The notes under the pieces are model-generated. The model saw nothing but the letters and a program-made list of their open reading frames with translations, was not told the origin of the DNA and did not search any database. Of a stretch of 64,000 nucleotides of DNA, positions 52,917 to 57,506 are shown piece by piece (the stretch's first letter is position 1; every line of letters starts with the position of its first letter). The stretch spans positions 310,001 to 374,000 of the forward strand of contig CAWUHX010000013.1 in NCBI GenBank assembly GCA_963922205.1, written 5' to 3'. The translations under genes and the position numbers were made by a program. Source of the DNA: Romanomermis culicivorax. Taxonomy: Eukaryota; Nematoda; Enoplea; Mermithida; Mermithidae.

Positions 52917-54512
52917 TTACTGCTGCTGCCCGCCGCCTCGGTAACCTCCTCGAGGTCTACCTCGATAGTATCCCCTCTGACCTGGTTGGCCTCAGGTCTG
53001 ACCTCCCTCATGGCCTTGATTTTGGCCTTGCTGACTTCCGCCGCATCTACCAAGCGGCATGAAGTTCGGATTATGGAACTGAGCATCCGGGTCTTGACCT
53101 TGGTGTTGCCAGGTTCCTCGGCCTCTGTAAGGTCGCTGAGGGCGCCCTCTGAAGCCTCCTCTGGGTTGACCTTGGTCATACCCCGGTCTAGCCCTGTACG
53201 GGGCCGGGTTTGAGAACATATCCTCTCTCCCCTGCTGCCTTTGACCACTGCTAGTGGAGCTGCTGCGTTGTGGTTTTTGAGTCCGGAAAGTTGAGTTGAG
53301 AGATTTTGATGAAATTGATTTTGACCGAGAAAGCGGACTTTTATAAGAAGTGCTAGCAGCTTCACTATACGACCTCTGGCTGGTCGTAGCTGACGATTGT
53401 TGTGTCGTCGGCGGTTGTTTCTTAGCCGGAGGGAGTCTAGGCACTTTAAACTTACTTGGGCTCTTGGCAGCCGTTCGCTGATATTTATCAGCTTGCGACC
53501 TGTCATCGCCTGGTGCCTTCCTCTTAACACCCATCTGGTTTAACCTTTGCAAGCCCATAAAAATATATTGATTAAAGGCTGCAATGTAGACATCATCTAC
53601 GTGGTTTCCCTGGGCCTCAATGACTAGTTGTCTGTTCGCAAACGAACACGCCTGGGCATACCACCTACCAATTGCCGTTGGCGTGATCGGAGCGAAGTCC
53701 AACTGTAGAAAGATCATTAGGGTCACATACCTAATGGCCGTAAAGACGTCTGAGGCATCGTAGTCCTGAAGCCATCTGGTGATGAGAATTAAAATGATCC
53801 ATTCCCAGATTTCCTCAGGGATGCGCTCTCCGTCAAACATAAATCCGCCCTGCATTTCAAATTGCTGGCGGTAATTTTCATGAATTTCGGCCATAGCGTC
53901 ATTGACCATTCTGTAAATGATCGGCCGTTCTTGGGGATCAAAGGCGAAATAATTGGCGACCTCTGGATTTTCGAATGAGATCGGCCCAATTAAGCGCCTT
54001 TGTTCCCGTTGCCACTCCCAATAGTCAATCAGAGTTTCGGCTAATTGACCAGGAGTGACAAACTGCTGTGGTTCCCTTTCGGGTCTATTAGCTACCACAT
54101 TCAGTTTGACCTTCTTGATCAATTTTTCCTCCGATTCAAGATTGGGCTTCACCAATACGCTTCCCGCAGGTTCGCTACTTCTTGCGGTATAGCTGGAGGG
54201 CACGGATTTGCTCTTGCCAGATGAAGTACTAACCTCTCCGCCGGTTTTCGATACCGTTCGCGTCTGAGTGTACGAAACTGTTGCAGTGGACCCTGTTGTC
54301 CTATCCGATTTTGTCTGGCCTTTGGAGGTCTCCGTTCGCGTCTGACTTTTTGCAGTCTCCGTCCTCGTCTGACTTTTCGAAGTCTCCGTTCTCGACTTTT
54401 GACTCGTCGAATATTCCAGGGTCGTGGTTTCTTCGGCCGTATCGTAGGCGTCATTTTCAGATCCAGTGGCGGCCGCTCCTTGTTGCTGCTGACCTTGAGC
54501 TGCAAGTCTGCG
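52917..54512 (-). pseudogene. capsid-like domain and RGG tail (C-terminal third of the exonuclease-nucleoprotein frame)
   Basis: In phase with the preceding frame across one TGA (54513-54515). It begins with a Ser/Thr/Glu/Gln repeat region with SQTRTET-like units. A mostly helical, Trp-rich domain follows (about codons 140-340) with RWLQDYDASDVF and LMIFLQLDF segments, then a Ser/Lys/Pro-rich stretch and an Arg/Gly-rich tail (RGGFRGRP, YRGRPRGGYRGG). One more TGA (52992-52994) interrupts the tail; the final stop is TAA at 52917-52919. A helical core plus basic RGG tail is typical of gag/nucleocapsid proteins. The capsid call is inference. No protease or zinc knuckle is present. Confidence 0.65.
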
Positions 54513-57176
54513 TCATCTGGCCTTACTTATCCTCTTTCTGCGCCTTACCTTTTCCTTGGCCAAGTGTCGGATAAATTTTTCCAACATACCTTCAGCTAAC
54601 ATCTGCTGAACCTTATCTGGGGAATAAATTCCAGGAATACCTTCCTCGGCAATTCTTCCCCTCTTCATCAGCTCTGTCGCTGCAATAGCTGAATCTGAGC
54701 TATCATCGGCTAATGCCTGCTCCTTCAGCTTCCTTTGGATTGCCCTGTGACGCAGGAATTCCTGCTGCATCAGCCTTTTCTGTTCTTGGATTTTGGCCTG
54801 TAGGGCCTCATGCTTCGCTTGTCGGTCCTGATCCTTAGGATCTTTGGCCTTCACAGGTATCTCCTGGGATGCTTCCTGCATCTTCTCCAGTCTGACATCG
54901 ATTCCCGACATTTTAGTGACTGCTTCGTCAATTTGAGTCTGGATTTTTTCCTCCTCAATAGCCTGTTTCTGAGTCTTGGCCTCCATCACATCCTTATTTT
55001 CCGATGTCTGGCCCTCAGATTCCAGAATTTCACCCTCTTCTTCTTCTTCAACATCCTCCTCTGAACTGGACTCAGAGTCTGAATTTCGTATCTTCGGCAA
55101 GAGCTGTTTTACTTTAGCTGGTAACACAGCTGGTGCCAGAGGTACAGACTGCATAATGGTGACAACCTCTGGCTCAGGCTCGGCCGGTTGCTGTATTTGA
55201 GGTACTTGAGTCGGCTGTGCCACCGCTGGTTGCATTGATGGCGGCACCACGACTATTACTGCAGCTGTCTGCGTAGCAGCAGTGTCCAAAGCTGGTGTAG
55301 CTTTGACCACTGGCGCTGGCGCTTGCGACTGCGTTTTAACCTGTCCCGTCCCTCCGGCTTGCGCCGTTTGGGAAGTAGAGGGACGATTTACCGGTACCTT
55401 AGATATTAACTCACCGGCTGGGGTATATGTTAGTGTATACCCCGGCATCTCTGAAGCAATTGTTCTCTCCCGGAAGCTTTTGCTAACAAACTCCGGTCTG
55501 AGCTCGAGCGGATTTCTCGGTGCATACGTAATTGGGTAATCGGTCGGCGATGCGTCTTCCGTCATCGGATACCGCAGTCCCGGCGTCAAAGTCTCGAAGC
55601 CTACGTAGTAAAAAGTTACATAAAAGTAAGGATTTACCTTGTAGGCTCCGTCCTTCAATAACGATTTGTCGTCGCCGATTTGCAAAATTTCCTCGGCTTC
55701 TCGAAATCGTAAGGGGACAAATCCGAACCGATTTTGCCACGCGTATACCCCTTTTTTAGATGGAAAGCGGGGTTCCGACGGCGGTAGCGTTGCTGCTAAC
55801 TCTAAATAATAAGCCAGGCAGTCGCCTGACTTCCAGGACATTTGCTTTATCATCTCCTGTCCTTCCCTGGTATAACTGTTTAAGAAGTTATAGTTCAGCA
55901 AAGCGCTAGTTTCGTAGTCGCACTCCGCTCTCGAGTGCGGCCATGCCAAATGATAAGCCAATGGCATAAATTTACAGATGACCTCTAACTCCGCAAAGTT
56001 TCGCTCATCTAACATACCTGAAATTTTTGCCAAGTTTGGCGTATAAAAATTGGTCTTGTAGGCCTGTCTATGACCTTCGATACCCACTGGGTAGTGGTTG
56101 TTTGCAGAAAAAACCTCTTCAGGTATTTGATGGGGCTTCCCGGCCTGTTGCCAGTATAGCTTGGCGTTTTCGTATAAAGTCAAAGAAATTTTCCCGTCTA
56201 AATCCCAATAGGTTCCACCTGACTTGAGATTTTCCAGTATATCCTTTGAAATATTAACCCAGTCTGGTATCTGGACGTCCTGGATTTCGTCGGGATCACT
56301 ATCTGTAGTGTATCCGTCGTCCTTCATCGGTTTGTTATCTCTTGGAAGCAGTGGATAGAAGCCACTTCGCAGTTGAACTCCCTGAGGATGAACTGGATTA
56401 CACTCCGTGGGCGCGGTATAATAACCGGTGTTATTTCCCTGCATCTGTACAGCCCAACGGTTATACATTTCACATTTCATCATGTGATAGACCATATTCG
56501 GCTGTACCTGATCGGTTTCCATGACTGGGGTACCTAGCCCCATTTCTCTATTCACGTTGCCCGGGATCATTAAGTATTGTTGATAAAAATGTAGGGCAAC
56601 GGTGTTGATCTGTTTGGGATCCACCTTGTCATGGTCGAAAATCTGCATTTGCATAAGCAGTTGATCGGCCATGCGATAGTGAATCGCGGCAAACATGACC
56701 AATAAGGAGTAGTATGCGTCTAGAGCGGCGTACCTAAGCTCTTCCGGCAATATACCTCTTTTGGCAAACCGATCACGGTTCGCCTTTAATGAAAAGTCAT
56801 ACTGATAGGGGCCCACGTCTATCAGGTAGAATTCCGTGAACAGTCCCTTTAACCGAAAGGTTTCGGGACAAATACCTGTCTGAAAACATTTTTTCTCCAG
56901 GTTTACCCCTACCATGGTTAGAGCGAAACGGTCTAAATCAAAGTATCGACCCTTGGTCTTTCTAAGAAATTCCCGTAAGGGCACAGTTTTGTCCCTGTCC
57001 TTATTGTCTCGCCCTGCACCACATACGTTATAGATACTTACCAGGTCCTCCAATACGGAATATCCGGCGAAGAGCATGTCGGAGTTCAAGAAGTCGTGGA
57101 GGCTGGTCCACTCTTTGAGCATCATCGACGTCGTATCAATAACGTAGGTTTGACCATTCGTTAGCGCGTAGCTCAC
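54513..57176 (-). pseudogene. exonuclease motifs II-III, unknown central region and coiled coil
   Basis: Continues in phase after a TAG at 57177-57179. Exonuclease motif II is LFAGYSVLEDL with Asp at residue 44; motif III is ELRYAALDAYYS with Tyr149 and Asp153, the DEDDy signature of the RNase D/WRN/MUT-7 type. From about 170 to 530 is a Tyr/Trp-rich region I do not recognise. Pro/Gln low complexity, a Ser/Glu acidic block (about 655-685) and a charged coiled coil ending in a basic KVRRRKR segment follow. It ends at TGA 54513-54515 and then reads in phase into the capsid-like part. Confidence 0.75.
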
Positions 57177-57506
57177 CTATCGGGCAAACTGCTTTCCCAT
57201 TGGATTGTCGACCTCTCTCGTTTTAAACAAGGCGGCGACCTTATCCTGGTTGACTTTTTCGACATCAAATCCACAAACTGGTTGTCCTCTGAAGATTGAT
57301 ACTTCTCGGATAAAGTGGAGTGTCTGGCTGACTTTCCCGATGTCTACCAATTTTGGTTCCTTGGGATTAGCCGGCCAGTACCCAAATGTGGCTTTAAACC
57401 ACTGATCCAGTTCATGGATTTGCACGGCCCTTTTGACGTTATAATCTAAACATAAGATACTATTAATTTTAGTGTTTATTCCCCTTTTTTCAGCGCATTT
57501 TCGGGT
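57177..57506 (-). pseudogene. N-terminal part of the exonuclease domain (motif I)
   Basis: The frame is open from 57506, just after an AG that could be a splice acceptor, to TAG at 57177-57179. No in-frame ATG exists here (the first plausible internal start is GTG at 57425), so translation must begin upstream or by splicing. Motif I is VCGFDVEK with Asp54 and Glu56 counted from 57425. The order and spacing to motifs II and III in the next frame segment fit one DEDDy domain split by a nonsense codon. Confidence 0.7.

What the first reader, a model, noticed from the sequence alone, without database searches (positions are those of the whole stretch)
52917..57506. DEDDy 3'-5' exonuclease fused to a capsid/RGG nucleoprotein inside an LTR retroelement
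Seen: motif I (GFDVE), motif II (GYSVLED) and motif III (YAALD) in correct order and spacing, all five catalytic residues present. They lie in a frame of about 1,500 codons ending in a helical domain and RGG tail, downstream of a Ty3/gypsy integrase on the same strand. Known: DEDDy exonucleases of the RNase D/WRN/MUT-7 class trim RNA or DNA, and MUT-7 acts in nematode transposon silencing. I know of no LTR element described with such a domain. Inference: the element captured a host exonuclease, possibly to process its own nucleic acid or to counter small-RNA silencing; an exonuclease on a nucleoprotein also recalls the arenavirus NP design.
Basis: partly seen in the sequence, partly recalled or inferred. 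Interest (0 to 1): 0.92.

Follow-up and report, generated by a model that had tools for sequence, protein, structure and literature searches.

The report
Exonuclease-like gene in worm retroelement
A decayed jumping element in a mosquito-parasitic roundworm carries, in the slot where retroviruses keep their envelope gene, a protein with the signature of an RNA- or DNA-trimming enzyme; such genes were already known in rotifer elements, so this looks like a new variant in a new animal group.

Summary
The window is from the nematode Romanomermis culicivorax (17 of 17 first-family relatives are from it). On the minus strand lies a Ty3-type element: gag/PR, RT, RNase H, integrase, then a third ORF (ORF3), then a 613-bp 3' LTR-like unit. 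Pfam and NCBIfam give no exonuclease match; the one AlphaFold run was uninformative (mean pLDDT 37.5). Support is a modest profile match to RNase D (without the one fragment picked by our own search: score 25.3, E 0.0039, best of 200 shuffles 23.4) that anchors motif III only, and colinear homology to a divergent second ORF3 family keeping YAALDAYY (0 of 200 shuffles). That family also sits in this window, directly before an LTR-like unit. Four of 17 relatives join ORF3 to gag, pol or LTR sequence: an element gene, not a host gene. Catalytic residues vary: motif I Asp 3 of 5 copies, motif III Asp 4 of 7. Novelty as claimed is wrong: bdelloid rotifer LTR elements have RNase D-like DEDDy ORF3s (PMC5408684). 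"Capsid" is unsupported.

The parts
62459..64000 (-). gag C-terminal part (RG-rich region) and aspartic protease of element 1; continues beyond the window
   Evidence: PF13975 E 6.9e-11; P0001 and P0017 match here
61049..62455 (-). reverse transcriptase of element 1
   Evidence: PF00078 E 1.3e-39
60012..61094 (-). RNase H of element 1
   Evidence: PF17917 E 3.9e-30
59010..60008 (-). integrase (zinc-binding H2C2 and rve core) of element 1; an in-frame TGA follows and a GPF-type C-terminal part is readable by eye down to about 58672
   Evidence: PF17921 E 5.6e-18, PF00665 E 6.3e-16; sequence
58128..58248 (-). putative first coding exon of ORF3 (MGKGARN...FFFID), ending before a GTAAGT donor
   Evidence: P0001 and P0017 gene models match 58278-58033 and 58254-58129; coordinates checked
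58029..58082 (-). putative second exon (GNAQKSLEDQL...), present in the P0001 model, absent from the P0017 model
56650..57445 (-). DEDDy exonuclease-like domain of ORF3, beginning after a TTTAG acceptor; domain limits approximate
   Evidence: profile match to RNase D; PDB profile hit to a mut-7 homolog, E 0.21
57258..57272 (-). motif I GFDVE (Asp codon 57266-57264, Glu codon 57260-57258)
57177..57179 (-). in-frame TAG, private to this copy
57045..57065 (-). motif II GYSVLED (Asp codon 57047-57045), assigned by eye
   Evidence: Asp in 6 of 6 copies that cover it
56718..56732 (-). motif III YAALD (Tyr codon 56732-56730, Asp codon 56720-56718)
   Evidence: shared with the second family, P0024
55608..56042 (-). 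middle domain of ORF3 shared with the second family (P0022)
   Evidence: hhalign score 28.8, E 0.0018, 0 of 200 shuffles
54120..55370 (-). low-complexity Pro/Gln/Glu-rich and charged region of ORF3, with in-frame TGA at 54515-54513; limits approximate
53481..54119 (-). C-terminal domain read as helical by eye; fold unknown
   Evidence: no Pfam match up to E 10; non-significant match to the second family (29 of 200 shuffles reach it)
52917..53190 (-). RG-rich tail; the frame from 57506 stops at 52994-52992 and the last part is in another frame
51553..52165 (-). 3' LTR-like unit of element 1, 613 bp, TGTTGGGCAC...CTGCACAACA; no second copy in 47000-64000
   Evidence: termini; P0013 joins ORF3 to its start (52187-52029); no direct repeat of 40 bp or more in 47000-64000
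51122..51574 (+). RT-like reading frame (by eye) of another retroelement, broken off next to where the 3' LTR-like unit of element 1 ends (nested insertion)
   Evidence: reading frame; its only Pfam match up to E 0.01 is weak (PF03539, a spumavirus protease model, E 0.0021)
1..2691 (+). second-family ORF3 (open, runs off the window start): low-complexity region, C-terminal domain, RG-rich tail
   Evidence: P0019-P0024; P0024 also matches the exonuclease part of element 1
3121..3695 (+). 3' LTR-like unit of the second element, 575 bp (TGTTGTAGTG...ACAACA), after a purine tract GCAAGGGGGGAGGGG

Best explanation
This is the third gene (envelope position) of a Ty3-type LTR retrotransposon family of R. 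culicivorax. Its product is a long multidomain protein: an N-terminal exonuclease of the RNase D/MUT-7 (DEDDy) type, a conserved middle domain, a low-complexity linker, a C-terminal domain and an RG-rich, probably RNA-binding tail. Shown: the gene's place, its multicopy nature, its linkage to gag, pol and LTR sequence, and its relation to a second divergent family. Supported, not proven: the RNase D-like ancestry of the N-terminal part. Inferred: the protein is made from a spliced RNA, as env is, joins the element's ribonucleoprotein through the RG tail, and trims 3' ends of element RNA or cDNA, or removes small or antisense RNA aimed at the element. The copy in this window is broken.
For: Order gag/PR-RT-RH-IN-ORF3-LTR on one strand. 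17 matching proteins, all R. culicivorax; 4 of 17 (P0001, P0017 gag; P0004 pol; P0013 LTR) join ORF3 to other parts of the element. Family profile against RNase D profile: score 28.6, E 0.0011, 0 of 200 shuffles; wider profile 30.4, E 0.00093, 0 of 200. Leaving out of the target the mut-7 homolog fragment, which our own profile had picked: 25.3, E 0.0039, best shuffle 23.4, 0 of 200, and 24.6, E 0.0081, best shuffle 21.2, 0 of 200. Profile against 177,635 PDB sequences: 2 hits up to E 10, one a mut-7 homolog at motif III (E 0.21). The second family keeps YAALDAYY and a shared middle domain: 0 of 200 shuffles for each block, the blocks having been cut after seeing the full-length comparison; tblastn against the window E 3e-6 at 26% identity. 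Two gene models (P0001, P0017) map from the same acceptor at 57446. Precedent: DEDDy ORF3 in rotifer LTR elements (PMC5408684).
Against: No Pfam or NCBIfam exonuclease match even at E 10. The top PDB profile hit was an aminotransferase (E 0.1). The profile match is modest once the self-selected fragment is left out. AlphaFold was uninformative. hhalign does not place motif I or II on the RNase D motifs: the motif II stretch of RNase D falls on or near RYFDLD (alignment printed for one of the two profiles), and motif I is off register; their assignment is by eye. Motif I Asp is kept in 3 of 5 copies and motif III Asp in 4 of 7 (the others Glu), below the family's mean majority frequency of 0.86. 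No single predicted protein seen here holds all five residues in one open frame. Function is wholly inferred.
Confidence: 0.48

Rival explanations
1. The domain is a DEDDy derivative that has lost catalysis and works as an RNA-binding module, as described for Maelstrom and EXD1.
For: Motif I Asp is replaced in 2 of 5 copies (Asn, Tyr) and motif III Asp by Glu in 3 of 7. Rotifer ORF3s show DEDD changed to DEED, and inactive DEDD relatives that retain RNA binding are cited in PMC5408684.
Against: Motif I Glu 5 of 5, motif II Asp 6 of 6, motif III Tyr 7 of 7 (P0017 left out because its gene model jumps at this point; 7 of 8 with it). The window copy has all five residues, and P0024 of the divergent family keeps YAALD. 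The varying copies are gene models that look decayed.
Confidence: 0.28
2. The resemblance to DEDDy exonucleases is chance or convergence, and the N-terminal part has another fold.
For: No family match; unusual II-III spacing of 109 and a loose motif pattern in 719 of 20,000 shuffles; profile score only slightly above the best shuffle once a self-selected fragment is left out (25.3 against 23.4); no confident model.
Against: 0 of 200 shuffles reach the RNase D profile score in each of four runs (and two in 101). The motif III block is shared with a family at 26% identity and is picked out in a mut-7 homolog from the whole PDB.
Confidence: 0.16
3. ORF3 is a host exonuclease gene that happens to lie beside the element.
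For: Exon-like structure with plausible splice sites at the 5' end.
Against: ORF3 lies between integrase and the 3' LTR-like unit in the same orientation. 17 matching proteins, 4 of 17 linked to other element parts. A second family has the same layout before its own 3' LTR-like unit.
Confidence: 0.03

Closest known systems
DEDDy-type ORF3 of bdelloid rotifer LTR retrotransposons (Juno, Vesta), PMC5408684
   Same: Extra ORF3 of an LTR retrotransposon, RNase D-like DEDDy signature, TG...CA LTRs, catalytic set not always canonical (DEED there, DEDE in some copies here)
   Different: Nematode host; two deeply diverged families in one genome; very long protein with middle domain, low-complexity region and RG tail; my protein searches returned no rotifer protein
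DEDDy exonucleases RNase D / Rrp6 / WRN / MUT-7 (PF01612)
   Same: Motifs I-III in order; profile similarity to RNase D; motif III block like a mut-7 homolog
   Different: Below Pfam detection; longer motif II-III spacing; not a host gene; fused to unrelated regions
Terminons (giant Penelope-like elements of rotifers) with DEDDy exonucleases, PMC6431247
   Same: A retroelement that carries a DEDDy exonuclease
   Different: Not LTR elements; different polymerase class
Arenavirus nucleoprotein exonuclease
   Same: Exonuclease joined to a nucleic-acid-binding protein (recalled)
   Different: DEDDh, not DEDDy (PMC7968707); no sequence relation shown
env genes of errantiviruses and other env-bearing Ty3 elements (recalled)
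   Same: Position after integrase; apparently spliced expression
   Different: No match to any glycoprotein family in Pfam; enzyme-like content

Membership tests
DEDDy 3'-5' exonuclease | Motif I DxE | tested here: met
   GFDVE in the window; Asp 3 of 5, Glu 5 of 5 copies; placed by eye, off register in hhalign
DEDDy 3'-5' exonuclease | Motif II Asp after a beta strand | tested here: inconclusive
   GYSVLED by eye, Asp 6 of 6; hhalign puts RYFDLD at or near the RNase D motif II
DEDDy 3'-5' exonuclease | Motif III YxxxD | tested here: met
   YAALD in the window; Asp in 4 of 7 copies, Glu in 3 of 7; aligned to RNase D YAAAD; YAALD in P0024
DEDDy 3'-5' exonuclease | Match to PF01612 | tested here: not met
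   No match up to E 10; the RNase D control matched at 2.7e-53
DEDDy 3'-5' exonuclease | Profile similarity to RNase D beyond chance | tested here: met
   0 of 200 column shuffles in each of four runs; modest, E 0.0039 and 0.0081, when the self-selected mut-7 fragment is left out
DEDDy 3'-5' exonuclease | RNase H-like DEDD fold | tested here: inconclusive
   Mean pLDDT 37.5 on a piece lacking motif I
DEDDy 3'-5' exonuclease | 3'-5' nuclease activity | not testable with these tools
   needs a bench assay
Ty3-type LTR retrotransposon (Metaviridae) | PR-RT-RH-IN order | tested here: met
Ty3-type LTR retrotransposon (Metaviridae) | Two LTRs | tested here: inconclusive
   3' LTR-like unit with TG...CA ends at 52165-51553; the 5' end lies outside the window
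LTR element with DEDDy ORF3 (rotifer type) | ORF3 downstream of integrase inside the element | tested here: met
   linkage in 4 of 17 relatives
LTR element with DEDDy ORF3 (rotifer type) | Common descent with the rotifer ORF3s | tested here: inconclusive
   Protein searches returned only R. culicivorax; they need shared 5-residue words and similar length
Viral capsid or nucleoprotein | Capsid or nucleoprotein fold in the C-terminal domain | not tested
   No family match; the structure job for this domain never got a slot
Arenavirus NP-type exonuclease | DEDDh signature | tested here: not met
   Tyr, DEDDy spacing, in 7 of 7 copies that cover motif III (P0017 left out, its gene model jumps there)

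The most novel reading that the evidence does not exclude
An old lineage of nematode Ty3 elements replaced its envelope with an RNA-binding exonuclease protein that destroys or trims the Dicer/RdRP-made antisense RNA aimed at the element. R. culicivorax is reported to lack Piwi and 22G-type RNAs (PMC4323106), so this would be a retroelement-borne suppressor suited to a Piwi-less worm, parallel to but independent of the rotifer ORF3s.
Probability: 0.1. Interest if true: 0.85.

Novelty: new variant of a known kind. Interest (0 to 1): 0.5.

Why it matters
Eight answered library searches (listings read) showed LTR retrotransposons with a DEDDy-type third gene only in rotifers, so this may be the first case outside them. 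It would mean that the association is not a bdelloid oddity but recurrent or widely shared among invertebrate elements. Two very divergent families in one genome suggest long retention, hence some benefit to the element. The open question from the 2017 rotifer paper, what such an enzyme does for a retroelement, could then be tested in a nematode that is reported to lack piRNAs.

Tried and rejected
Host-gene reading: rejected. Stop codons as conserved recoding signals: rejected for TAG, because 6 of 6 relatives covering it have Tyr; for TGA only P0009 was seen to read on. Capsid reading: no support found; the domain's structure job never ran. Second-family C-terminal domain as homologous to the first: not significant (29 of 200 shuffles reach the score; single-sequence attempt and BLAST also negative), although layout and order agree. 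AlphaFold model m5855d1ec5eb2 was not searched against fold libraries because its confidence was too low. NCBIfam gave nothing and PHROGs only weak matches to families of unknown function (E 0.19 and 0.078). Rfam: one tRNA only. Scan of viral contigs with the family alignment could not be formed. The window's own genome could not be searched: the genome search was busy, so copy number, intact copies, LTR pairs and DNA-level selection are untested. Alignments A4 to A7 for the C-terminal domain were poor and not used for folding.
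Full report
What is there. The window comes from the mermithid nematode Romanomermis culicivorax: the 17 proteins that match the first ORF3 family (2, 16, one shared) and the 6 that match the second are all from that species. The 5' end lies outside the window, so the LTR pair could not be checked. The LTR-like unit ends next to where an RT-like reading frame on the plus strand breaks off (51574), which reads as a nested insertion into another retroelement; that frame's only Pfam match is weak.

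The motifs. GFDVE, GYSVLED and YAALD are present in order and in one frame. The frame is not open: it has TAG at codon 110, between motifs I and II, TGA at codon 998 and a stop at codon 1505; the last RG repeats down to 52917 are in another frame. The 6 of 6 relatives that cover the TAG position read Tyr there (P0001, P0002, P0005, P0008, P0010, P0017), so the stop belongs to this copy. A strict motif pattern chosen after the fact appears in 9 of 20,000 shuffles and a loose one in 719 of 20,000; the motifs alone are suggestive, not proof.

Is it an exonuclease domain? Sequence-to-family searches say nothing: Pfam and NCBIfam gave no exonuclease match up to E 10, while the RNase D control matched PF01612 at 2.7e-53. 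Profile methods do somewhat better. A profile of the piece with motifs II and III against a DEDDy profile (E. coli RNase D, 10 of 80 fetched orthologues, five PDB fragments) scored 28.6 (E 0.0011), against a best of 19.7 in 200 column shuffles. A wider profile that includes motif I scored 30.4, best shuffle 21.9. One of the five fragments, from a mut-7 homolog, had been picked by our own profile, so I repeated both without it: 25.3 (E 0.0039) against a best shuffle of 23.4, and 24.6 (E 0.0081) against 21.2, 0 of 200 in each. The match is real but modest. Where printed (and the first profile of 101), the alignments put YAALD on the RNase D YAAAD. A search of the PDB with the family profile gave two hits up to E 10, an aminotransferase (E 0.1) and the mut-7 homolog exactly at motif III (E 0.21). 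The AlphaFold run had 8 sequences, lacked motif I and gave mean pLDDT 37.5, uninterpretable.

A second family. The open frame at 1-2691 on the plus strand has a similar layout (low-complexity region, C-terminal domain, RG-rich tail) and lies just before a purine tract and a second 3' LTR-like unit (3121-3695). Its relative P0024 carries ILPYAALDAYYLLLLF near its N-terminus and matches the window's first ORF3 at 56912-56595 by tblastn against the window, E 3e-6, 26% identity. Full-length profile comparison showed two colinear shared blocks; cut out and tested, the part around motif III scores 34.9 (E 6.7e-5; only 2 second-family rows cover it) and the middle domain 28.8 (E 0.0018; 3 rows), with 0 of 200 shuffles for each. 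The C-terminal domains could not be shown to be related (29 of 200 shuffles reach the score). I infer an old ORF3 superfamily in this genome, in which motif III has outlasted most of the surrounding sequence.

Element gene, not host gene. Of the 17 first-family relatives, P0001 and P0017 also contain gag of the same element, P0004 contains a piece from just upstream of the RT domain, and P0013 runs into the start of the LTR-like unit. The other 13 match no further part of the element that lies in the window; one of them, P0002, is fused in its gene model to a mitochondrial carrier. These are gene models and may join exons wrongly, but what counts here is that the pieces lie near each other in the same order. 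P0001 and P0017 both map from the acceptor at 57446; in the window this corresponds to a first exon from ATG 58248 to a GTAAGT donor at 58128 and, in P0001, a small middle exon at 58082-58029. Spliced expression, as for env, is plausible but unproven.

Catalytic residues. Counting only copies that cover each site: motif I Asp 3 of 5 (Asn and Tyr in the others), motif I Glu 5 of 5, motif II Asp 6 of 6, motif III Tyr 7 of 7 after leaving out P0017, whose gene model jumps at this point (7 of 8 if it is counted), motif III Asp 4 of 7 (Glu in 3). The mean majority frequency over 206 columns is 0.86. Two of the five residues are thus less conserved than the average site, which weakens the case for a working enzyme; decay of dead copies could explain it, but I could not reach the genome to test this. 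No single predicted protein here has all five residues in one open frame.

Mechanism. Most likely the protein is an accessory factor of the element's ribonucleoprotein: the RG tail binds nucleic acid and the N-terminal domain trims 3' ends of RNA or single-stranded DNA. This is inference. PMC5408684 (abstract, passages and section 3.1 seen) suggests 3'-end processing for the rotifer ORF3s, notes DEDD changed to DEED there, and cites Maelstrom and EXD1 as inactive, RNA-binding relatives; that is the main rival here. PMC4323106 (passages seen) reports no 5'-triphosphate small RNAs and absence of PRG-1/Piwi in R. culicivorax, and that DNA methylation machinery is present; its Dicer/RdRP model of transposon silencing rests mainly on Trichinella. 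A role against such silencing is possible and untested.

Novelty. Bdelloid Juno and Vesta elements have RNase D-like DEDDy ORF3s (PMC5408684), and Terminons carry DEDDy exonucleases (PMC6431247, passages seen); a 2019 paper already calls a DnaQ-like 3'-5' exonuclease a well-known accessory domain of LTR-transposons (PMC6338049, passages seen). Eight answered library searches listed no report in a nematode, judged from titles and abstract starts, in a library that lacks most subscription journals. PMC10879605 (passages seen) states that TEs make up 289 Mb of the 359-Mb R. culicivorax genome. I rate this a new variant of a known kind: new phylum, two deep families, a much larger fused protein. 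The arenavirus comparison fails on the DEDDh/DEDDy distinction (PMC7968707, passages seen), and the capsid label has no support.

Noticed in passing
window 1-3695 (+): A second retroelement family with an open ORF3 directly before a purine tract and a 3' LTR-like unit; used above as an independent member of the ORF3 superfamily.
   Followed up: partly
window 49598-51574 (+): Fragments of another retroelement (RT-like frame at 51122-51574) into which element 1 seems to have inserted; the other half would lie outside the window. Pfam matches are absent or weak.
   Followed up: no
window 4830-5564 (-): Host-type MoaC domain frame (PF01967, E 2.4e-53), probably a molybdenum cofactor synthesis gene.
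   Followed up: no
window 19056-19580 (-) and 42982-43362 (+): Frames with an ELM2 domain (PF01448, E 8.3e-10) and an NCBP3 domain (PF10309, E 2e-17).
   Followed up: no
window 43630-43703 (-): tRNA-like match (Rfam RF00005, 39.8 bits); not checked whether it is a gene or a tRNA-derived repeat.
   Followed up: no
window around 22962-23588, 29965-30480, 39599-40167, 48827-49323: Several frames on both strands contain similar glycine- or proline-rich, G- or C-run-rich stretches, by eye copies of a dispersed repeat.
   Followed up: no
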